DNA of 64,000 nt from Paracyclopina nana (Eukaryota > Arthropoda > Copepoda > Cyclopoida > Cyclopettidae), in NCBI GenBank assembly GCA_019096065.1, contig JAGUCH010000001.1:9114001-9178000 (forward strand), in the 5' to 3' direction. Numbering within the stretch: position 1 is the stretch's first letter; every line of letters begins with the position of its first letter. A program made the translations under genes and the position numbers. Shown here piece by piece: positions 2,996 to 55,842 of this stretch. The notes under the pieces are model-generated. The model was not told the DNA's origin. It did no database searches and saw only the letters and a list, made by a program, of their open reading frames with translations.

Positions 2996-5900
2996 TCACT
3001 CAGTTTTGAACTCTTTTGGCAAGTCGGAGCAATGGAGAGAGGAGGAGGAAAAGAATCCTCCGTCCATATCTGAAGAGAACTTGGCCCTATTTCTCAGCCT
3101 CCTCCAGTTCTTTTCGGTCAAAATGTACACAGCCCCAAATCCATCTTTGTCATTGGCAATTAGGTAGACTTTACAGCCAATTGTCACCATTTGAGGCCTT
3201 AAGATTGTCAAGAATTGACACATGATTCGTGCATAAAGGGCTTTGCATACACATAGCATACCTTTTGGTTGGAAAAGGAATTTTGTGCTTTTCGTCAATG
3301 CTCCACGTTTTATTGGAGGGCGAAAATATTTCTGCCGTTTGAAGTAGTGTCCCATTACCATCGATTCCTCCTACAACCATTAGTAGCTCCCCAGAAGGAG
3401 TATTGATACTCACGCAAGAATGGCCTTTTCTTGGAACAACCATGCTGCCCACTTTGCCCCACGCCTGCTCATTGAGTATATCATAGCGTTGCGTAAACCC
3501 ATTCAGTGTGGCATTATCCTGAAAATGCAAGTCGGCATAAAGGACTTTCGAGACCTAATGCTATTAGCGTGAAAACCTTGGTAGCTCCTCCTGAGGCGAC
3601 AAAGCTTTTTGCAACTTCAATCATGCAATGGCCTGCTTGAGCAACACCCAAAGGCTTTCCCTCCTGTGCGGCTGGAGTTGAGGGATCAAAAAATGTCGTT
3701 TTCTCGGATGCCTCAGATGTGTCCGATAGCACTCCACCAGTGAACCACCAACTTCCATCGGAAAATGTCAATGGAGCTGAATCATACAAAAGCCTTATGC
3801 AATCTCCACTGGTCAGCATAAGTGCAAAAGTACCTTGCTCTGAGCGCTTTTCCTTTAAGTCGATCACATGCCTCCATTCCATATCTTTGGAGAGGTTGCT
3901 GATTCCGTGGTTGCCATCATATACGTATATTGTGCCATTGAGGTCGCTGATCATTATATTGCTATTGCTCGCATTGAATTTCGGAGGCCAACATTTCTCG
4001 TTCAAGGGAGAGTGGGACACAATTTCCACTTTTCCTTTCCCATTGATGCCAATGAAAGCTATGTCTGAAAAAGGAGATATGCAGAGCTTTTGTCATTTCC
4101 ATGCTCCGGGATTTGCTCATACTTTTGGAAGGTCTACATTTCACACTGTAAGCTCCTTTGGAGTCCACTCTTTTATTTTTTGTGGCATTGCGGCCCGGAG
4201 CAGAGGCTTCTTCATTTTGATTTGTGTCATTGTCTGACAAAGAGTCTGATTGTTTATTCTTGTCTGGCGGTGAGCTTTCAGATCCATCTTTTGTGCTTAT
4301 TTTATCAATTGGCTTTTCTGAGCTCTCGTCCAGCTTCTCGGTTGTATTCTTTAAGTCTGGTTCACTGGCCTTCGTATCTGCGTTAAAAACATTTTGTGAG
4401 ACGACTTTTTCCAACAACCTGAGTAAGTTTTCTTTTGAGCGAGATTTACCATTTGCTTTTTCTTCTTCTTCTTCTCCTTCTGCACCAGCAGCAGTTGAGT
4501 TGGAATCAGTTATTTCTTTGTTCACATCTTTCAATGGGTTCACGGTGGTCGTCTTCTTTTGGCCTCTATTAGTCGGACTCTCTGTTGCTGAATTAGCCCC
4601 TAACGACTCGTGGAGGTTTGATTCAGCTCTTCTATCATTGTCAACTCGAGCAACTTTGGGCTTCTCGACTGAATTGCTGCTTATCGTCACGTTATTCTCT
4701 TCTTTTTCAATAATCTCATCAAAACTGGACTCGTCAATTTTTTCATCAGTCTCTGATCTATGTTCATGATATGTTTCAGGTGCCCCTTCACTTGAAAACT
4801 TTTTTCGAGCATTTGCATGACTTTCTTCTGAAAAGTTGGTCGCAGTGTCCCCCTAGAGAGAAAGGAAATAATTATCTATTATTTGTAAAATTAGAGCACT
4901 TTTAATTGCCTTCGCTTCTTTCTTCCCCGCGAACTCTCCTGAGTGCCTGTTTGGTTTATTCACAACATCTCTTGTCGAATTTACTTCCACAAAATCGGGC
5001 TCCTCTCCATTCTTCAATGTTTCAATTAGTGTCAAATCTAACTTTGAAATTGGGATTAAAACTACCTCATCATCTTTGATAGCATCATTCTTCTCATTCA
5101 GCTCCGTCAAGTGATTTGTGATGGGTAGCTCAATTTCCTCTCTAATTTTTGCTCCTCGGTTTGATGCATCAACAAGGCTGGATTCAGCGTTTTTACTTCC
5201 AGATCCTGATGAAGAAGCTTCATGTTGCTTCTCCTTTTCAGAATTGGAATATTTGTCACTAGAGCGTGTTGAATTTCCTTCACCTGCACGACTTGCTTCA
5301 TTTTCGTACTGCAAAGTATAATGTAGCACAGAAATTGATGCAGACTGATGTAACTCACTTCTTCTTCATAGCTGGTATCAGATTCATCAGTGGATGACCG
5401 GTTTCCCTCAGACTTGATAAAAGGCTCGTTCGGTTTTTGATTCAGATTATGCCTGATTAAGCCTTTCAAAATGGACCTCATCATACTTTGACCACTTGAT
5501 GACTTTGACGACTCCTCTTGCCTTTCACCACTTTCTGATTTATCCCCACTCCAAGTTTTGTCCTTTGAAGAACTTTCGTCAGTCAAATAAGCTTCTGTCT
5601 CATCCTAGGAAATTTAATCGGCGAAAGCCAGTAGGTAAATTTTAGTCCTCTTATTTCCACCGTTACACCTACCTCTTCGTAGTTGTCGTCATCTGCTCCA
5701 ACCGCCTGGAGATTATTCTCGCTTTTTGTGAAACCTTCAAGATTAGACCCGTCTGTTGTCGAATCACTATTAGTATCGCGATTCCATGAGCCATTCACGT
5801 CTGACTTTTTACCATCTCTTCCGGATGCAGAGTCTTCCTCCTCCTCCTCCAATTCTGAATCTACAGGAGCTTGATCAGAGTCTTCTTTCAGAGGTTTTTT

Positions 5901-7540
5901 ATTTATTTTTCCAACGGGTTCTAGTGCCTCAGATTCAGTCTCAAAGTCTTCTTTTTTAAACTTCATCAATGTCGTGTGAATAAAAGAATCTGGCATTTGA
6001 GGAGCGGGTTCCAGCTCTTGGTCAAAGTCTCCGTCTAAAGTGGTCTCCTCGTTTTCTAAATCGGTGCTTTTATCCTCTTCCGCTTTGCCAAGTACTACCT
6101 TGTCCTCGGGATTATTTCTGAAGCGGATGTTGAAAGATTGTTCAAGATTTTCGTCGTCATACTCTGACCTATTGTCATTAATGCTCTTTTGCGTTGACAT
6201 ATCTAACTCATGGTCATCAACATCAGGTGGCTCCTCATTCTCCGAGTAATTTTCAGTAATTCCATCATTTCCATTGGAGGGCAACCTGGTTTCTTCAATC
6301 GGATCAGAATTATCCTCGACGGGCTCTTGATCTTCTTCAATCTCCTCGGCATTAGATCTACTGTCATCGGTCTCCTTTTCTTTTGAGTTATTTTCGCCAT
6401 TAGTCTTAGGCTTGGAATGCGTCCTTTTGCTACCATCTTCAATATCGGAAGATTCTTCGCTGGCGCCTTTATAACTGGATATGCTTTCACGGCCAACTTT
6501 TGTCATTTGATTCAATTCTGCAGTTGTTTGCTCATCAGTTGCATCTAATTTACTCAATATGCCTTCTGCTTCCTCAATTGCATTAGATTGTCCGATTGCT
6601 AATTTTCCTGAATTATCCCCACTATGGCCGGTGTCAAAGCCGACTTTATTGCTCCCTACTGAAAAGTGATTGCCATCTGGGAGATCAATTTCAATTTCAA
6701 TTTGTTCCACTTCATCATTATTATTTGATTGACTGTCAGCCTCAGAGTTGTCCTTGAGTACAGGCATCTCACTTCCCCCTGGAATTAAAGTTACCTGATT
6801 TTTTTTTTCATAACGCGCTCCCTTAAAAAAACCTGAATCCCCGCTGATTTCCTCCTCGTATTCATGTTCTTCATTCTTTTCGCTAGCGTTTTCATAATAG
6901 TCTTCCTCCTCATCAACGTATTCTCTACTGTCTTCATAATAGTACTCCTCATCGGTGCCTGAACAATAGGGCTTTAAAGTTTTGATGTTGAAACTTGAAT
7001 GGTTTGTTAACTTTGTTTACGCGTATTCTTGAAAAAATATACGACGCCAGAATAGGATAAAGTTGAAAAGTTTTGATTTTGACTGTTTTTGAGCATTCTC
7101 GACTATTTGTTTGCAAAATATCAAGTAGCTTAGATTGTTGACATTGCAATGCATTGTAGGTCAAATTCAAGCTACCAGATGACCGCCGACATGTACGCTT
7201 CACGCTTTTGGCTCTTTTCATGAAAAACTCGACTGAATAATGTAAAAGCAAACTGTTACGTAAATACTAGTTTTACTCGACACAATAACGTGGCCAACAT
7301 TAATATCACCTTTCTTTGCGTTCGTCTCCTCGGGGCAATTTGATTTTGTGCTCGGAGTTTCATCGTATGGTTCTGTGGAGAAAAGAAAAAAACTAGAAAA
7401 AATGCAAGTGCAGCTGGCTTTAGGCTTTCTTACTTACTGCATATGCAAACCATTGGCTTTGAATGGTCGTATGATTGAGCTGTAGCCAAGAGTGTGACGG
7501 AAAAAAGATTGATCAGTCTCCATGTCTTGGAATGAAACAT
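2996..7540 (-). CDS. Secreted acidic Kelch-repeat protein, 9 exons, 1257 aa
   Basis: Exons: 7438-7540, 7310-7372, 5673-6958, 5359-5604, 4910-5308, 4123-4852, 3577-4064, 3262-3518, 2996-3197; total 3774 nt, in frame. The ATG at 7540 begins a clear signal peptide (hydrophobic core INLFSVTLLATA, likely cut near residue 21). A short Cys segment (VCICKPYDETPSTKSNC) follows, then about 850 residues rich in Glu, Asp, Ser, Asn and Lys with almost no hydrophobic or Cys residues, so disordered and strongly acidic, including YYYED and DYYEN tyrosine-acid clusters (possible sulfation). The last ~330 residues contain Kelch-type blades: SWWFTGG and MVVGGIDGNGTLL with the following EIF..W signature. Kelch propellers bind proteins; a secreted one with an acidic polyelectrolyte arm could bind calcium, chitin matrix or cationic partners (inference). 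The 54-bp intron after 4910 seems to be GC-AG; an alternative is a GT donor about 90 bases earlier. Divergent from the CAP/TSP1 gene. Confidence 0.85.
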
Positions 7541-7720
7541 GACTGAACATACTTCACCTTCAAAGGAATTCTTGTACTTTGATATGTGATACGATTCTTC
7601 CATAATTTTTTCAGCTGATGGCGGGTGGAACTTTTTCCCTTGGAATGTTTGGGCAGCAACCAAGGTTGAAAGCCCCAAGAAGCTTTCTACTAGTCCGACG
7701 GAGCCCTTTCAACTTCCCAG
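7541..7720. promoter_or_regulatory. Divergent spacer between the Kelch and CAP/TSP1 genes
   Basis: The Kelch start codon (minus strand, 7540) and the first supportable CAP/TSP1 exon (acceptor TTTTTTCAG ending at 7614, or a second good acceptor CTTCCCAG ending at 7720) are under 200 bp apart, head to head. The stretch probably holds the Kelch promoter and 5' UTR. A shared promoter is an inference, because the first exon of the plus-strand gene was not found. No TATA box is obvious. Confidence 0.35.
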
Positions 7721-10700
7721 ACAATCAAAACAGGCCTATGGTGACAAGGAAATTATTGACCCAAAAGACACAGTCTGTCTTCCACGATATACTTGTGGCC
7801 AACAAAATTTGAGGAGTCAATTGGACAACAATGTGCCTTTCCTGGATCAGTTGAATGATGCAACAGTCAGTTGCTTGCTTAAGATTTTTTTGTGAACTTT
7901 TCAATAGCTTCAGTTTGCTTGCAGGAAAAAGGGGAAAACTTTGTATCCTTTGCGTTGCTGGCAGACATTCCAAGTGACAGTCTGCGACCAAATGGATCAA
8001 CCAGTCTTGGTGGGTTTGACATTGATGCCGTAATAGCTGAAGTCGACGAGGACAGCAACAAGTTCATATTTGGGATGAAAAAGGAGTGCTCAAAGGACCA
8101 ACTGGAATTTTGTGCTGGTAACAAGTACAAAAGCGGAGATCACACCATGTGCAAATACTGCGTAGATATACTCTCACACGATTTTATGATACACTTAGTG
8201 AAATCAAGTTATCGTTTTCTCAGGGATTGGGGAAGAAGTGCCCGTATTATCTGGACCCTAGCACTAACGACGTGACGGGAAGAGTGATTGATGACCAGAA
8301 AACCATAGATTACATACTGAAATTACACAATGAAGTGAGGAGTAAAATTGCCATGGGAAGATGCGATCAACCAAAAGCTGGTTGCATGTGGCCTTTGGTA
8401 GGATAATGATATGCAGCAATAACTAAATATAGTGCGTGCTCATAATAACCTAATTTAGGAGTGGGATCCGGAATTAGCCAGGGTAGCCCAAAAGTGGGCA
8501 GACCAGTGCGCTAATGTCGACTACAGGAATGACGTGAAAAGGAAGGATCCGTTTTTGTTTCATGACGAGCATGCTCAAAGGAAGATTGGTATTCTCCCCA
8601 TTCTCTCCTGATACAATAATGGAAGAAGCATCCTCCTCTTCTTTTCAGAGAAATTCAGCAACTGGCAGGGTGTTGGCCAAAACGTGGCAAGAGATATCGC
8701 CCAAGGGACTGCGGGCCAATTCGATGCCCATAAACTGATAGGCCATTGGTTCAACCAAATTTTGTTCTTTGACCCAGAGGCCGTCAAGTCGTTTGGGTAG
8801 CAGAAGCTCAAGATGCTTTTCCTTCTACAATTAGAAAGCTTTTCTTTTTGGCTTTTAGGTCAGGTAATCAGTGCAGCAAAGGCATTGGGTATTACACCCA
8901 ATTAGTTTGGCAAGACACCACTCATGTTGGCTGCGGGTGGACTCAGTTCCAGTACCGAGGATTTCCTGGGTACTACGAGAATTTCCTAGTATGTAATTAT
9001 GGTCCATCTGCCAACGTTTGGAAGCAACCAGTGTACGACATAGCAAAGGAGACCTGCAACTGCCCTTGCATCAATTGCAACCCTAAAACGGGAATGTGCC
9101 CACCTGCTTGCAGATTTGCAGTTTGGTCCTCATGGGAGTCTTGGTCAGACTGTTCTGCAACCTGTGGCGGCGGACAAAGGTCGAGGGATAGACAATGTGT
9201 CGAGTCTCGTGTGCCACCCCCAGATGAATTTTGGACCAAAAGAGCCATTGATGCTTATGGCAGTCTCTCCTTTGTTCCGCGCCAAAAAGACGTATCAATT
9301 GATCCCAAAAGAGTGCTCGATCCCAAGTGGTGTAAGCGAGGATCTCCTACGGAAAAGGCGACTTGTAACGACGTTGCGTGTCCAAGTAAGGGCTTTCCCA
9401 TCTCGCATTAGTTTTCCCTTGTCTGTATTTGCCGTGTATTTTTCTCTTTTAGCCTGGACCAACTGGGGCGAATGGTCTGAGTGCTCAAGGACTTGTGGAG
9501 GGGGCGAGCAAAGGCGGGAAAGAGTTTGTGAATCTGCTAGCCAGAGGCTCTCGTATGCAAAAAGCACTTCCGTCTGTCCAGGCGAAGGCACCGAGGTGAA
9601 AGTGTGCAATTCTAATCAGTGTCCAGGTAACCAATCATCATGCTCTATTTTTAATGATATTTAACTCATTATTCTGAGAATAGAGCTGACACCCTGGTCG
9701 TCGTGGACGCAGTGTAGCAAGACCTGCGGAACGGGAGAACGAACGAGAGCCCGAGAATGCAAGATTATTGATAAAAGAGAAGCTAATGCATGCGGAAATG
9801 CTCCATTGCTCGAGCGAGAGACATGCAATGCCCAAAAATGTCCCATTTACACAGAATGGTCAGAATGGAGTCAGTGCTCCGTCACTTGTGGCGGAGGAGA
9901 ACAAACGCGTGAAAGATCCTGCGTTTTGCCCCCGATTTCGCCCTTTTATGCCAAAGAATTGCTTTGCAATGGGCCTCCAAGAGAAACAAGATCTTGCGGT
10001 ACTAATGATTGTCCATCCTGGTCTGAATGGTCACCGTGGTCTTCGTGCAGTCTCACGTGTGGCGGTGGCTCCAGCACAAGGAGCAGAAAGTGTGCTTTGC
10101 CTAACAAGACCGTTGTTCCTGCAACTCAGTGCCAGGGAGGAAAAGAATCGGAAACGAAGCAATGCAACGAAAAGAAGTGCCCAGGTATAGTATAATGCTC
10201 ATTATGCGTCCTAAGTCAACTTGTTTGAAAAGATGCGTGTCACAGAGCTTGGCCCATGGTCAGAATGGTCGGAATGTAGCAAAAGCTGTGGAGGAGGTCA
10301 ACAATCGAGGATGAGAGAATGCGGCCTTTCTCTTGACGCGAGATCCCCTGAAAATCCGTGCAAAGCATCGTTAGATGAATCGAGGCCATGTAATCCGGAT
10401 CCTTGCCCCGAGTTTGGTCCCTGGAGCTCCTGGACTCCTTGCTCGGTGACATGCGGTGGAGGTAATCAAACTCGAAGCCGAGAGTGCTTACCCCATGATG
10501 ATCCGTCGGTGTCGGCTCGAATCAAGGCGTTGTACTGCGATGGGCTTTCTCTGCAGAGTCAAGGATGCAACACAAATGAGTGCCCAGTTTGGACCGAGTG
10601 GACAGAATGGACTGCTTGCTCTGTCACATGTGGCGGAGGAAAGAGGCAGAAAACGAGGGAATGTGTACTACCTGGTGGGGGCAGAAGCGCAGATCTGTTT

Positions 10701-13700
10701 TGTCCTGGAGATGATTTAATGGAGGAGAATTGCAACCAAGATAAGTGCCCAGGTAAGATGCGCAACTTTGAAGGTAAGCTGCAAAAACCCTAAGTGCTAT
10801 TGTTATGCAGAGCTGGGACCTTGGGCTGAATGGACTCAGTGTAGCCTAACTTGCGGCGGAGGAACCAGGCGCAGGCAAAGAGAATGTGGACTACCAAAAG
10901 TTCGCGGTTTGATTGATAATCCTTGCAAAAAACCGCTGTCGGAAGAGGAAAGTTGCAACGAAGGCAAGTGCCCAACTGTCTCAAGTTGGTCAGCTTGGAG
11001 TGAGTGTTCAAGATCGTGCGGCGGAGGATTACGTAAGAAGACGCGAGAGTGCGTTCTGCATGAAGGCCTATTTTACGCAGTGGATAATCCTTGTAACGTC
11101 CCGCTCGAGGTTATGGAGGAGTGTAACGCTGTGACCTGTCCAATGTGGACTGAATGGGGCGAATGGACTGATTGCTCAAAAACTTGTGGGGGAGGCAAAA
11201 AGCGGAAATACAGGCAATGTGTGGACCACAGGGGCAGTTTGGTTGACTCATCCAATTGTCCTGGTGACGAGGTCTTGGCGAAGGACTGCAGCACTCAAGA
11301 GTGTCCTTCTTGGACGGACTGGACTGATTGGACCGAGTGCTCGGCAACATGTGGCGGTGGCGAGAGAAGTCGAATACGTGAATGCATCGTCTCCGAGCCC
11401 TCGATCGATGATGATACAAGGAAAACATCTGCCAATCTTTGTGCAGGCGATGCCATCGAAACTGAGACATGTAACCGCAACGATTGCCCAATTTGGACAG
11501 ATTGGAGCGAGTGGACCGAATGTTCAGCTACCTGCGGCGGAGGCCAACAGCGGAGAGTTAGAGATTGCATTTTGCCCAAAGCTTTGAGCGAGGACGGCTG
11601 CGATGGCGAAAGTGAAGAGATCAGAGAATGCAATGCAAACAAGTGTCCAGTATGGACTGACTGGACCGAATGGTCCCCTTGCACAAAGTCATGTGGAATT
11701 GGCACTAGGTTAAAGACTAGGCAGTGCGTTCTGCCTGCATCCTTGGGACCTGAACGGATCGGGCTTTTTTGCACCGGTGACGCTGAGCTAGCTGAAGAGT
11801 GTAACGTACAATCGTGTCCTGTTCCCAGCAAATGGTCCGAATGGGGCGAGTGCTCTAAATCATGCGGAGGTGGCACACGCACCAAAGTCAGGGAATGTGT
11901 CAATCAGCGAGATGCCCAAGGAAACCCGTGTAAAGCTGATCTCACCGAAACAGAGGCTTGCAATGAGGAGCCGTGTCCAATTTGGACTGAATGGACAGAG
12001 TGGACCAGTTGCTCTGTGACTTGCGGCGGAGGCACGAGAAAGAAGGCCAGGGAGTGTGTCTTGCCCAAAAGTGACCAGCTTGGGTGTACAGGCGAGTCAG
12101 AAGTGGTTGAGGCCTGTAATTTGAATACTTGCCCATCTTTGACACCATGGACCGAATGGACTCCCTGCTCAGTGACTTGTGGTGGCGGATCTCAGAAGAG
12201 GATTAGGGACTGCTTGATTCAAAGATCGGGAGCTGAGAGCAACCCGTGTTTTGAGGAGCTCGAGGAGACGCGGGAGTGTAATGCGGACAAATGCCCTAAA
12301 TGGACGGAGTGGTCAGAATGGACTGATTGCACTGACACTTGTGGTGGTGGCTCAAGGTCAAGGGTGAGGGATTGTATTGAAGACAGGAGCAGTCTAGCTT
12401 TAGATGCTTGTGGGCCTGGATCGAGAAACGAGACGGAGGCTTGTAATCCCCAGCCTTGTCCCATGTGGACTGACTGGACTGAATGGTCTCAATGTTCAGC
12501 CTCTTGCGGAAGTGGCACTCAACACAGAGCCAGAGAATGCACCATTCCCAGCATCAATCGTGATGGCGGGGATCTCGAATGCGATGGCCTAGCGTTCGAG
12601 GACAGAAAATGCAACGAGCAGAAATGCCCTCAATGGACGGAGTGGACACCTTGGTCAGATTGCTCCAAATCCTGCGGTGGAGGCACTAGAGTAAAAACGA
12701 GATCTTGTCCGGTCTCTTTAGCACGAAATGATAGCCCTTGCGGGGACGAAGGCTCTGGAGCAGAAATTTCGGAGAGCTGCAATGAGCAGCCATGCTTGCC
12801 AGATCCCGCGTGGAGTGACTGGGGCGACTGGTCTGAATGCAGCCTCACGTGTGGCGGAGGAACTAAAAGCAGATCCAGAATATGCGAGGCGCCTAAAGGC
12901 TGGCGGAAGAGACGTAATGTTGATGATGCTCCGTGCCCCGGGCTGTCCACAATGGTTATGTTCTGCAACATGAACGACTGTCCCCCTGAAACAGCATGGG
13001 GCCCATGGGGTGGTTGGTCCGAGTGCTCCAAGCCATGCGGCGGCGGTGAAAGGGCCCGATCTAGGGAATGTGCTGTGGTGCAAAGAGACGGCCAGCCAAC
13101 TTCATGTTTGGGTGACAGCCAGGAAAAGGGAAGTTGCAATGACTACCCATGCGTTCAATGGACCGATTGGGGGCCTTGGTCCTCTTGCTCAGCGACCTGT
13201 GGCAAAGGCCTAAGAAGTAGATACAGAAAATGCAAAAACCTTGAGCGTGATTCGTCTTCTACTGTGGACCCCACTAGTAACTGCATTGGCGAGGCTGAAG
13301 CCACCGAAGAATGCTTCGCAGGCTCCTGCTCCACGCTTGATTGCGGCGAAATATCCGCAACGACGAAATTCTACTCATTCAGCGGTCGGCCAGCAACGAG
13401 CATTGGTACTTCCAATTAATGATGTCACATTTTTCGGCTTTAACATTATTTTCTTTGCTATTAGCTGATTGCTCGTGGGATTACTTTGGCTGCACCAAAA
13501 GACTAGGCAAATGGCCCAGCAATAAGCAATGCTGCACTCAGAGGTTTGACAACTGCTGCATGTTCGTCATGGGGAAGCTGCCCATGACCACGACAACTTC
13601 CTCCACGACCACATCAGTCTCGACGAGTAGCACTACTTTGGCTGTGCAGGAATCTCAAGTTACCACGAGTCCACCTTTGCACTCGACGACTCAAGTACCA

Positions 13701-14656
13701 GGGGCGAAAGTGGAGCTAAGTAGGTTTTACCACAACTTGATGTTCTACTACTTGTGCACCTCTTACCTTTTTTTACTTGCTTTCATTCAGTTGATTGTAT
13801 CTGGTCCTACTTCGGGTGCATTGAGCATAAAAGGAAAGACGAGAAAAGTTGCAAAGTCGACTTTAATGATTGCTGTATGCTCTCCATGGGCATGCCTCCT
13901 GATGTCACGACAACAACCACAAAAAGGTACAATTCTCGTTCGGCCTAACTGTTACAATGTTCCCTTGATGGTTTTTGCAGGCCCATAAGCGATATTGACT
14001 TGCCGGAACTGCCCGACTTTCTTAAGCCGGTATCGTCATCCACTGCGAGGCCTCCAATTCCTATACAAGATATTGACTTGCCTGATGGAGCCAGCATCAT
14101 TCAACCCGACGAAGAACAACCAGCAGTTGTGGAAAAGCCTGAAGAAGAAGGTAGGCGTAATTTTACGCTCCTCTTTTAGAAGATCTTGAAGTACAATGAT
14201 TTTTTGTATCTAGGATATTTTGGCTGCCTTGGTAGGATTTATGCTTGTGAGGTGTCTGGAAACGCTAATTGTCTCAAAGCAGAACGATGCCTTCCCCCAG
14301 AAGCTGTAGTTGCTGAAATAGAGACTGACAGAGGTGATAACGCTTAAGTTTCAGAAAATGTGCGGATCACGGACAGGCTCTTTATTATCATTCCAGACCC
14401 TTCAACGGCTCCACTGAGCGATGGAATTTCCATCTGCAAGGCAGCAAGCAGTGGGAAAAACTCGAATATCCTGGTGCCACATCCTACCGATTGTGGCAAG
14501 TTTTATAGCTGTCAAGCAATTAAAATCTCTGATGGAGCATGGGACTGGATTGCTCATGAGCAACTTTGTCCGTCCACGACAGGATTCGACACTGAACTTC
14601 AGATTTGCAACTTTATTGAAAAACTGCCTCGGTGCTATGCTAGAAAGCTATTTTGA
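7615..14656 (+). CDS. Giant secreted CAP / 23x TSP1 / YFGC-module / CBM14 protein (5' end missing)
   Basis: At least 2026 residues. Exons: 7615 or 7721-7865, 7925-8161, 8224-8397, 8459-8588, 8649-8796, 8859-9385, 9453-9626, 9684-10184, 10246-10752, 10811-13405, 13465-13719, 13791-13926, 13981-14150, 14214-14333, 14397-14656; phases all agree. N-terminal part is an antigen-5-type CAP domain: Cys segment with [56 protein letters not shown] and FLVCNYGP, followed by a Cys-rich hinge (TCNCPCINC). Then 23 TSP1 repeats of the form WxxWxxC..TCGGG..R.R.C with C-mannosylation-type WxxW signatures. A Thr/Ser-rich linker separates copies of a new Cys module built on YFGC. The C-terminus is a CBM14/peritrophin-A domain ([13 protein letters not shown]). 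CAP proteins are secreted; TSP1 arrays bind glycans and matrix; CBM14 binds chitin, so a cuticle or extracellular matrix role is likely. No in-frame ATG or signal peptide was found in the first exon. Confidence 0.88.
9117..13331 (+). repeat. Array of 23 TSP1 coding repeats
   Basis: Repeats of roughly 55-65 codons, each starting with a W-x-x-W pair and CS.TCGGG, are encoded by five exons: 1 in 8859-9385, 1 in 9453-9626, 3 in 9684-10184, 3 in 10246-10752 and 15 in the single uninterrupted exon 10811-13405. Early exon borders fall at the start of a repeat (phase 1 introns), as expected for shuffled modules; the 15-repeat block has lost or never gained introns. Variants of the core: TCGTGE (repeat 3), SCGIGT (14), SCGSGT (19), PCGGGE (22), TCGKGL (23). 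Confidence 0.92.
13465..14333 (+). other. YFGC Cys-rich modules and Thr-rich linkers
   Basis: Within the CAP/TSP1 gene. Module A (exon 13465-13719) reads [11 protein letters not shown], then a paired CC, then [13 protein letters not shown]. Module B (exon 13791-13926) reads [11 protein letters not shown], then one C, then [13 protein letters not shown]. Each is followed by a Thr-rich tract ([10 protein letters not shown] and VTTTTTK). A diverged third copy in exon 14214-14333 keeps YFGC and spaced Cys residues but lacks the CC pair. Between B and the third copy is a linker in which DIDLP occurs twice. One module per exon with phase 1 borders suggests exon duplication. I do not recognise the domain. 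Confidence 0.7.
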
Positions 14657-22444: not shown

Positions 22445-22650
22445 TTCGAAAACTAAATCGGCGCAGTGCAAGCAATGAAGTATTATGCAAACAAAATTAG
22501 TACCGAGTATCAAGGCCGAAGGGCTGACCTTGGGGGTTTTTTTAAAGCCCCGTTGTCTCTTCTTTTCGACAGATTGCTGGCAAAGCAAAACAACTATGCA
22601 AATCCTAATGTAATTGGCTATATATTTTCCAGGCCTCGTAAGAAGCAAAA

Positions 22651-25600
22651 ATGGAGGACGAGATGAGCAACGTTACCGATATGGCTGCAGTCAATGATGT
22701 TGTTTCCGTCAATGCCACCGAGCTCCCACCAGACATGAAGTTCAATTCAGGCCACGTGGTCTCCATAGTTGGCTACAGCTCGCTGTTCTTGGTCAGCTCG
22801 GTGGCCAACTCAACGGTGTTGATGATCCTGGTTCGGAGGTACAAGAAGACCAAGTCCAGAGTCAACCTGCTGCTGATTCACCTGGCCATCGCAGATCTTT
22901 TTGTGACCTTTCTCATGATGCCCCTGGAAATAGGCTGGGCCTCAACGGTCATGTGGCTGGCCGGAGATTTCCTGTGCAGATTCTTCAGTTTTTTCAGAAT
23001 ATTCGGGCTGTTCCTCAGCTCAAATATTCTGATATGCATCTCCATGGACAGATTTTACGCCATCGTATGTCCTCTGTCAACTGGAACAGCCACCAGAAAC
23101 ATGAAAATTCTTCTCACCACAGCTTGGGTCCTCAGCATTTTGTGTGCTTTGCCTCAGGTATGTCCTGTGCTCAGGCTGCTTAGGCGTATCTGCGCAGAGT
23201 AAATCGAGCGAGGAAAGCAATTTTGTGTAGCCTAATTTGGATGCATTTGTAGAACTAGTATTTTTTCAAACTGAAGAAAGGCACAAAACATGCAGGCTAT
23301 TTCGGCCCTAATTGTTGAAGAAGAAGCATATGCTGGTGAGTACAGAGATAAATGGCTGAAAAAAGAGCCAGTTTGTCGGAATCGTTGCTTCAAAATGCAT
23401 GTAATGGGAAAGCAGGATCACGAGATACGAGCGCTAGGCGAAGCCTAGTACACTTCAAGGAAGTTGTGCAGAAAACTGCTATGGCGGTTCAATCTTCTTA
23501 AGCGTGGTATTTAGGGGGAGTGGAAATGTGACACGAGCAGCTAGTGCTCAATCGTGCAAAATAGGGATACTTTGCATAACAAATTGCCATCCTAGATCTC
23601 ATTCTGACAAGCCGTTTGTTGTAAATTTCAGGTTTACATATTCCACGTCGCAGCCCATCCAATGCACACTTGGTACACACAGTGTGTGACTTTCGGCTCT
23701 TTCCCGAGCGAGGCATGGGAGAAAGCCTACCTCATTTTCGGAATGGTGATGATCTATTTCCTGCCCCTAGTGGTTATTGTAGTCACTTACTCCATTATAC
23801 TCTTCACCATATACCAGAAAAGTCGACCAGGTAAGCGGGGTGATTTATGTACGTGTGTCTGGTCAATTTGCGATCTGCAATCATTATTTCGCCACCCCTT
23901 CAACTCTGATTGCTGATGCATATACAATAATGTACGTGGCTTTTCACTCGTAATGAGAAAAATCCTTTGAGCGCGAAATAAATGAGGCCTCCAGACGGGG
24001 AAAAATCTACTTTTTCATGCAGAAGCTAGAAATAACACACGCGTAATTAGCCTCGCTGTGTCACATTATGCTCGTCACGCGATGAGCATCATTGAAAGCA
24101 TCTTTTGAGGTCACGAATGCACCACCAACTTGCTCATGCTATCTTTCGTGGATTTTTATTAATACTTCACTTCAATTTTCCTGCTTTCGGTTCGGTCAAT
24201 TTTCTCAGCCAGAAATAAAAAAATGCAAAATTCAAAGTGAAAACTGTGAACGAAATCTTAACCATTTATATGCTTTGAAACTTTGATAGGTGCAATTTTG
24301 CAAATGTCAACTTCGTGACTTCTCCGCTTTTCGTCTTCCAAATCTCCAGTAATGTGACCTTTAAATAGTGAAAACGACAAAAACAAACGATAATCATCTC
24401 GATTGCAACTCGAGTTAGTGTCGCAAAAGAAGAAGTTGACTCTAAGGAAGCCTCAGAAGCCTGAAAGCTTTTTTATGTCTCTTTTACTTACTCGGCTACA
24501 GGCATGTGTCATAAAGCAAAAATGCTGTTTTAAAGCCTGCTGAGCTTCTCTACAAGCTTTCAGCATAATTGAATTGCGCGTTGTTTTGAGGGGAAGAATT
24601 AAAAAATTTTCATCATTTTTGTTTGGCAAGGCACACTTCAATCTATTAGTTTCCGATGTTACATACCAACCAACGTAGTAATTGTATTTTTGAATCCACT
24701 TTAATTGATTGATTTTCAGATAATAATGGATCTCAGTCTGGTGACGGGTTACGTCGTTCAGGGGCTGGTGTGTTGAACCGGGCCCGTGCTCGTACCTTGA
24801 AAATGACAGTTGTTATCGTGCTGGTTTTCATCTTTTGTTGGACTCCATATTACATAATCACTTTATGGTAAGTCTATTGCACAGTCTGAAGGACTTGATT
24901 TCCTTTGAATGCTAGGTTGCATGCAATTCAATTATGGTTCGGAAGCTTCAATAGATTGCTAGCTTTGCTTGGGTTTACATAAGTCTGATGATGATTCGGC
25001 ATTCCTCTTTTCATGTGCAATACACGAGATGATACTGAACCTGACTCACGACGATGATCAATCAACCGCAGCAATAAAAATATTTTAAGGATCTCGATGC
25101 CCCTTTGGATACTCGATGGACCTTGTTGACAATTGAGTTTGCTCAATTGGGTTGACTAAACCAATAGAGAACAGCAAATAATACGCTAGAAATGGTGTAA
25201 TTCATCTGCAATAGTTATTTAAAATGAATAATTAGTAGCCTAGCATGTTATATATTCAGGCTCCCTTTTGGCCTTTCAATTCGTCAGCAAAAGTAGAAAG
25301 AAAAAGCAACCTATGCAGCTTTGCTTTTGTTTGTTAAAAACCACGATGCAAGCTGGGCCAGAGCAAATGCAAACCACCACGAAAACAGCTTTTGTGAGTG
25401 CGAGCTGGAGTCGTCAAGAAAAAGCTGATGATCTCAGCACAAAGAGTCACCCTGAACTACAAATGAATTTGTACATCAGCGATAGACCTTTCTACTTGTA
25501 GGAAAAGGACTGCAGAGTTTTCGTAAGGCTAGGACTTTTCCGAGAGTCCTAACAGAGAAAATAAAATATCTAGAATTAGTTGGCTAATGACAACTATAAC

Positions 25601-51175: not shown

Positions 51176-55842
<4,667 letters not shown>

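What the first reader, a model, noticed from the sequence alone, without database searches (positions are those of the whole stretch)
7615..14656. A CAP domain fused to 23 TSP1 repeats, new Cys modules and a chitin-binding domain
Seen: one phase-consistent exon chain joins an antigen-5/CAP domain, 23 TSP1 repeats, two clear plus one diverged YFGC module, and a C-terminal CBM14 domain in at least 2026 residues. Known: CAP proteins of arthropods are usually single-domain secreted proteins of 200-250 residues; TSP1 arrays are matrix or complement-like; CBM14 binds chitin. Inference: a chitin-anchored, heavily C-mannosylated extracellular scaffold presenting a CAP domain, possibly a lineage-specific matrix or defence protein.
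Basis: partly seen in the sequence, partly recalled or inferred. Interest (0 to 1): 0.78.

Follow-up and report, generated by a model that had tools for sequence, protein, structure and literature searches.

The report
CAP–thrombospondin-repeat–chitin-binding giant secreted protein
One arthropod-type gene encodes a large, apparently secreted protein that joins a venom-allergen-like CAP domain to 23 thrombospondin repeats and a chitin-binding tail, possibly a sugar-decorated strut fixed in a chitin-containing coat; the parts are known, and I found no description of the combination in the papers I could search.

Summary
CAP and the first TSP1 share one open frame, which argues strongly against two genes. 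In the same genome relatives of the pieces occur apart: a gene on contig 3 has similar modules plus CBM14 with no TSP1 match nearby, and two further CAP genes with changed metal-site motifs run into other tails. Of 23 repeats, 22 carry the O-fucose consensus and 23 the C-mannose consensus; Dpy19 and O-FucT family matches exist. Best reading: a modular, glycosylated extracellular strut anchored to chitin with a non-catalytic CAP head. Expression, glycosylation and chitin binding are untested, the species was not determined, and no eukaryotic proteome could be searched, so uniqueness is unproven. New variant of a known kind; moderate interest.

The parts
7402..7465 (+). Exon 1: start codon and signal-peptide-like sequence MQVQLALGFLTYCICKPLALN; donor ambiguous between 7465 and 7468
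   Evidence: 3 phase-compatible ATG-to-donor candidates in the stretch enumerated (starts 6600-7559), two of them this exon with either donor
7615..8161 (+). Exons 2-3 (7615-7865, 7925-8161): N-terminal region without a Pfam match, then the antigen-5-like pre-CAP Cys region (HTMCKYC)
   Evidence: no Pfam family at E<=1 for the N-terminal region; antigen-5 similarity reaches back to HTMCKY
8224..8796 (+). Exons 4-6 (8224-8397, 8459-8588, 8649-8796): most of the CAP domain
   Evidence: PF00188 at residues 216-382, E 4.9e-17; closest solved structures 2vzn 1.7e-30 and 1qnx 3.3e-22
8859..9385 (+). Exon 7: CAP C-terminus, Cys-rich linker ([19 protein letters not shown]) and TSP1 repeat 1 in one exon
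   Evidence: one ORF 8773-9411 matches PF00188 (6.1e-5) and PF00090 (2.6e-7)
9453..9626 (+). Exon 8: one TSP1 repeat (repeat 2), phase 1-1
9684..10752 (+). Exons 9-10 (9684-10184, 10246-10752): TSP1 repeats 3-8
10811..13405 (+). Exon 11: TSP1 repeats 9-23 in one 2595-bp exon
   Evidence: 899-aa ORF; 23 TSP_1 stretches in the whole protein; best solved relatives properdin 7.4e-27 and thrombospondin-1 4.7e-22
13465..13719 (+). Exon 12: module 1 CSWDYFGC...CCTQRFDNC, then a Thr/Ser-rich linker
   Evidence: two strict pattern matches in residues 1746-2082, reached in 0 of 2000 shuffles; no Pfam match at E<=1 and no PDB match at E<=1
13791..13926 (+). Exon 13: module 2 CIWSYFGC...CKVDFNDC
13981..14333 (+). 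Exons 14-15 (13981-14150, 14214-14333): Pro/acidic linker and diverged module 3 CLGRIYAC...CLKAERC
   Evidence: resembles by eye the third module of the contig-3 gene
14397..14656 (+). Exon 16: CBM14 chitin-binding domain and stop codon
   Evidence: PF01607 E 2.3e-9; 55% identity to C3:4585396-4585596

Best explanation
One intact gene encodes a secreted modular extracellular strut. Shown: a signal-peptide-like start, CAP, 23 TSP1 repeats, three Cys modules and CBM14 in one phase-consistent reading. Inferred: in the ER the TSP1 repeats are O-fucosylated and C-mannosylated, giving a stiff rod; the C-terminal modules and CBM14 fix the rod in a chitin-containing matrix (cuticle or gut lining); the CAP head, with two metal-site motifs changed, serves as a displayed binding surface for lipid or protein and not as a metal-dependent unit. 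It probably arose by joining a CAP front, a TSP1 array and a C-terminal module/CBM14 cassette, relatives of which occur apart in the same genome.
For: Complete 16-exon reading, 2082 aa, one terminal stop. CAP+TSP1 in one open frame. 23 TSP_1. 22 of 23 repeats with C-x-x-[ST]-C and 23 of 23 with W-x-x-W/C; consensus definitions from passages of PMC11990869. Dpy19 matches at two places and O-FucT matches at three places in the genome. CBM14. Contig-3 gene with modules and CBM14 in matching order. CAP relatives at C1:8.72 Mb (41% over 240 aligned positions) and C5:3.196 Mb (29% over 234) with different tails. In the four-row alignment C7 keeps WYNE and HFTQ; the window has WFNQ and YYTQ, C1 WYRD and VTQ, C5 IESD and no TQ motif. 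Other genome CAP fragments printed keep W-Y-x-E (L011, L013, L015) and/or H-[YF]-T (L010, L011, L012).
Against: No transcript, protein or localisation data. One CBM14 domain, of a family with 99 matches in this genome, is a weak anchor by itself. The AlphaFold2 model of module 1 was uninformative (mean pLDDT 55.1 from one sequence, showing short strands, not helices), so the module's fold is unknown. An RKRR at residue 1603 could allow cleavage inside TSP1 repeat 21 and so separate the CAP-bearing part from the chitin anchor. By overall identity C7:4337 (34% over 208 positions) is nearer to the window CAP than C5 is, so the grouping of window, C1 and C5 rests on shared motifs, not on a tree. 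The other metal-site positions were not assessed one by one; one His (FHDE) looks kept.
Confidence: 0.5

Rival explanations
1. Fluid-phase or gland-secreted effector: a properdin-like TSP1 protein or salivary/immune protein in which CAP is the active head and CBM14 recognises chitin of fungi or prey and is not an anchor in the animal's own matrix.
For: Best solved relatives of the array are properdin; the CAP domain is nearest to venom allergens among solved structures; a potential furin-like RKRR site could release the N-terminal part.
Against: 23 repeats plus Thr/Ser- and Pro-rich linkers and a cassette shared with another CBM14 gene look more structural; two CAP metal-site motifs are changed. 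None of this excludes the rival.
Confidence: 0.23
2. Matrix protein in which CAP is a passive relic: the TSP1 array and chitin-binding tail do the work.
For: Changed metal-site motifs in window, C1 and C5 CAP domains.
Against: The CAP domain matches the full Pfam model (positions 1-117) over four exons and keeps the TQLVW...GCGW and NFLVCNYGP stretches (CAP signatures, recalled); a CAP front is kept before three different tails.
Confidence: 0.21
3. Two adjacent genes (CAP gene and TSP1/CBM14 gene) merged by exon chaining.
For: The components occur apart elsewhere in the genome.
Against: CAP end and TSP1 start lie in one ORF without intron or stop, 8773-9411; no stop in the whole chain.
Confidence: 0.03

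Closest known systems
Hymenopteran venom allergen 3 / antigen 5 (PDB 2vzn, 1qnx) of the CAP superfamily
   Same: CAP domain by sequence, HTMC-Y-type N-terminal Cys region, CAP signature stretches
   Different: Those chains are 218 and 209 residues; here CAP heads a 2082-aa protein, and HYTQ and WYNE of 2vzn are YYTQ and WFNQ
Properdin and other TSP1-array proteins
   Same: Tandem TSP1 repeats; highest-scoring solved relatives of exon 11
   Different: Properdin has only TSP1 repeats besides its signal sequence (passage of PMC5446238) and 7 of them (table passage of PMC11990869); here 23 with CAP and CBM14
CPAP1-type cuticular proteins (one ChtBD2)
   Same: Single CBM14/ChtBD2 that makes up a small part of the protein
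   Different: CPAPs have no other identifiable domains (passage of PMC3504105); here CAP and TSP1
Papilin / ADAMTS-like matrix proteins
   Same: Secreted matrix proteins with TSP1 repeats (papilin listed with 5 in the table passage of PMC11990869)
   Different: The Pfam scan at E<=0.01 lists only TSP1-type models and CAP, no protease, Kunitz, spacer or PLAC domain
Anthozoan TSR proteins with new domain combinations (PMC5446238, passages seen)
   Same: Shows that TSP1 repeats join with various other domains
   Different: The passages seen name astacin, VWA, trypsin, ShK and Ig; 'CAP domain', 'SCP' and 'Cys-rich secretory' occur 0 times in the text

Membership tests
CAP superfamily (antigen-5-like) | Sequence match to the CAP domain above the curated cut-off | tested here: met
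   PF00188 63.3 bits against cut-off 21.1, profile positions 1-117 of 117
CAP superfamily (antigen-5-like) | Cation-binding tetrad of the central cavity, here the His of HYTQ and the Glu of W-x-x-E (assignment of these residues recalled) | tested here: not met
   window YYTQ and WFNQ; C7 paralogue HFTQ and WYNE; 2vzn HYTQ and WYNE. The other two positions were not assessed. A CAP protein without the tetrad is known (HpVAL-4, passages), so this does not exclude membership in the superfamily
   2082 residues with 23 TSP1 and CBM14
TSP1-repeat (TSR) proteins | TSP1 domains with six Cys | tested here: met
   23 of 23 repeats with six Cys; 23 TSP_1 stretches
CPAP1 cuticular proteins | One ChtBD2 and no other identifiable domain | tested here: not met
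   CBM14 present but CAP and TSP1 also present; definition from a passage
Papilin / ADAMTSL | Spacer, Kunitz, PLAC or Ig domains beside TSP1 (recalled) | tested here: not met
   Pfam scan at E<=0.01 lists only TSP1-type models and CAP; the same scan missed CBM14, so small domains could be missed
Chitin-anchored matrix proteins | Binding to chitin in vivo | not testable with these tools
   Only the CBM14 sequence match

The most novel reading that the evidence does not exclude
This arthropod lineage has evolved a set of 'CAP-headed' extracellular giants: a CAP type with changed metal-site motifs serves as the N-terminal head of very large secreted proteins (here 23 TSP1 repeats plus a chitin anchor; at C1:8.72 Mb a repetitive acidic tail of roughly 3,300 residues), tied together by a so far undescribed C-x6-C...C-x6-C disulfide module.
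Probability: 0.38. Interest if true: 0.6.

Novelty: new variant of a known kind. Interest (0 to 1): 0.43.

Why it matters
CAP proteins are studied mainly as small venom, saliva or sperm proteins of uncertain mode of action (recalled). A CAP domain fixed at the tip of a long glycosylated, chitin-anchored rod would give a setting in which CAP acts as a displayed binding head, and would add a natural many-repeat substrate for TSP1-specific glycosylation. The recurrent Cys module would be a candidate new domain family. If the architecture proves widespread in related arthropods, it is a lineage innovation of the extracellular matrix; if not, it is one more product of domain shuffling.

Tried and rejected
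Two-gene reading: rejected because one ORF holds both CAP and TSP1. Assembly collapse or recent expansion: rejected because repeats are 28-62% identical. Alternative first exon: 3 candidates enumerated; the top-scoring one (6864-6954) is more hydrophobic than mine but lies antisense within the minus-strand ORF 5586-7016, so I preferred 7402; this is a judgement, not a test. Alternative exon-2 end at 7869 gives an early stop. AlphaFold2 on module 1 from a single sequence: low confidence, not used. NCBIfam on two ORFs: no family. Relatives of the CAP-TSP1 junction in the prokaryote-genome and viral contig collections: none confirmed, as expected for an animal gene. Repeat-HMM scan of the fetched loci: the 70 top rows printed came from loci overlapping the window gene, so nothing was learnt about other TSP1 arrays.

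Literature: seven searches on the architecture listed no paper that I could tell describes CAP+TSP1+CBM14; I saw listings with starts of abstracts only. Six papers were opened with 'find': PMC11209345 on spider CAP proteins (0 occurrences of thrombospondin, TSP, chitin; no passage), PMC7694928 on blowfly CAP proteins (0 thrombospondin, 0 chitin; describes a double-CAP protein; passages), PMC5893428, PMC11990869, PMC3504105 and PMC5446238 (passages). An eighth search, for the organism, gave nothing. 0 matches of nematode cuticle collagen and of insect odorant receptors are inconclusive because no control genome rang; the organism is called arthropod-type from 80 Chitin_bind_4 and 99 CBM14 matches.
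Full report
Observation. ORF listing and splice modelling give one gene on the plus strand with 16 exons, CDS 7402-14656, 2082 residues, a single terminal stop, and 15 GT-AG introns, 14 of 54-71 bp and the first of 149 bp. The donor may be 7465 or 7468. Pfam on the whole chain at E<=0.01: TSP_1 with 23 stretches (E 2.7e-205) and other TSP1-type models, and CAP at 216-382 (E 4.9e-17). CBM_14 is found on its exon (E 2.3e-9) and by the genome-wide family search at the same place (C1:9128462-9128635), but is not listed in the whole-chain scan. The end of CAP and the start of TSP1 repeat 1 share ORF 8773-9411, so the fusion does not depend on my splice choices.

Repeats. 23 of 23 repeats have six Cys; lengths run 52-62 residues except repeat 1 (88); pairwise identity is 28-62%, mean 41%. 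22 of 23 carry the O-fucose consensus C-x-x-[ST]-C (repeat 22 does not), and 23 of 23 carry at least two W-x-x-W/C sites, 61 in all. The consensus rules are from passages of PMC11990869. The genome has Dpy19 family matches at two places and O-FucT family matches at three, so the modifying machinery is plausible; which O-FucT is the TSP1-specific one was not tested. Best solved relatives of the exon-11 ORF are properdin and thrombospondin-1.

CAP head. Closest solved relatives are venom allergen 3 of 2vzn (1.7e-30) and Ves v 5 (3.3e-22). A CAP query of the own genome found the window exons and relatives elsewhere. In a four-row alignment window, C1:8.72 Mb and C5:3.196 Mb share HVGCGW-x-QF and YENF-x-VCNYG. 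C7:4337 keeps WYNE and HFTQ, whereas the window has WFNQ and YYTQ, C1 has WYRD and VTQ, and C5 has IESD and lacks the TQ motif. Other CAP fragments of the genome that were printed keep W-Y-x-E (L011, L013, L015) or H-[YF]-T (L010, L011, L012). Against a simple subfamily: by overall identity the window CAP is 41% to C1, 34% to C7 and 29% to C5, and no tree was built. CAP proteins without the cation tetrad are known, for example HpVAL-4, which binds sterol (passages of PMC5893428). That HYTQ and W-x-x-E hold tetrad residues is recalled; the other two positions were not assessed.

Tail. The 'YFGC' modules fit C-x6-C...C-x6-C; two strict matches in the C-terminal 337 residues, a count reached in 0 of 2000 shuffles. 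Nine modules that I picked by eye from this genome align with four invariant Cys, which partly reflects the picking. No Pfam match at E<=1 for three examples given and no PDB match at E<=1 for one. The contig-3 gene at 4584033-4585596 carries, by my reading of its unspliced open frames, four such modules and CBM14 in the same order as the window tail plus one extra module; BLAST supports the first module (46%, 1.4e-13) and CBM14 (55%, 1.5e-15), the second only weakly (0.0149). The nearest TSP1 match on that contig is about 2.9 Mb away (positions). Weaker resemblances to module 1 are at C3:1311900 (E 2.3e-4), C7:5166363 (0.0087) and C9:2883687 (0.014). In the C1 CAP gene the open frame runs 3,366 residues from its last CAP exon onward, so roughly 3,300 beyond CAP, with 3 strict non-overlapping pattern matches (0 of 2000 shuffles reach this); the C5 gene's tail has 1 (33 of 2000 shuffles reach this, so weak). 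These last are by Cys pattern only, not by alignment score.

Uniqueness in the genome. In a hand-made table of 12 other CAP-match positions, ten lie on contigs with TSP1 matches listed, the nearest pair being 122.5 kb apart; two on C8 have no TSP1 match on their contig. I left one CAP match (C7:5347564) out of that table; by hand its nearest TSP1 match is about 637 kb away. So the window holds the only CAP-TSP1 neighbourhood seen, with the caveat that exon-split domains and lower-ranked candidates can be missed (one search scored 150 of 189 candidates; one search did not itself list the window's CAP).

Mechanism. Shown: a modular protein with the above parts and a signal-peptide-like start. 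Inferred: ER glycosylation stiffens the TSP1 rod; CBM14 and Cys modules hold it in a chitin matrix; CAP is a non-enzymatic binding head. Rivals are a fluid-phase or glandular effector, a passive CAP, and (nearly excluded) two genes. An RKRR at residue 1603 is a possible cleavage site that would favour release of the N-terminal part.

Known or new. Every large domain is known. I found no description of this combination in seven literature searches (open-access library only; listings, and 'find' passages of a few papers), and no eukaryotic proteome could be searched, so 'new architecture' is provisional. Filed as a new variant of a known kind.

Noticed in passing
L037-L039, genome C1:8710772-8722547 (-): A second CAP gene, about 400 kb from the window gene: signal-like start, CAP relative, then a Thr/Ser/Glu-rich tail of roughly 3,300 residues in one open frame with repeats spaced about 90 residues and Cys modules.
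   Followed up: partly
L028, genome C5:3196898-3198200 (+): A third CAP gene with changed motifs in a 491-aa open frame, followed by an Arg-rich stretch and one C-x6-C...C-x6-C pattern.
   Followed up: partly
L040, genome C3:4583958-4585608 (+): Gene with four C-x6-C-type modules (by eye) and a CBM14 domain, parallel to the window gene's tail; its 5' exons were not resolved.
   Followed up: partly
L043, genome C7:5165467-5166641 (-): A Cys module followed by a long Thr/Ser repeat tract and what looks like a fibrinogen-like domain (recognised from recall, not scanned).
   Followed up: no
window 5586-7016 (-): Very acidic 477-aa open frame without a Pfam match at E<=0.1, on the opposite strand just upstream of the CAP-TSP1 gene.
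   Followed up: no
window 55348-55839 (+) and 22642-23199 (+): An open frame that looks like EGR-type zinc fingers and one that looks like a GPCR (both recognised from recall, not scanned).
   Followed up: no
window about 9211-9333 (TSP1 repeat 1, residues 453-493): The first TSP1 repeat holds an insertion of about 30 residues relative to the other 22 repeats (88 against 52-62 residues).
   Followed up: no
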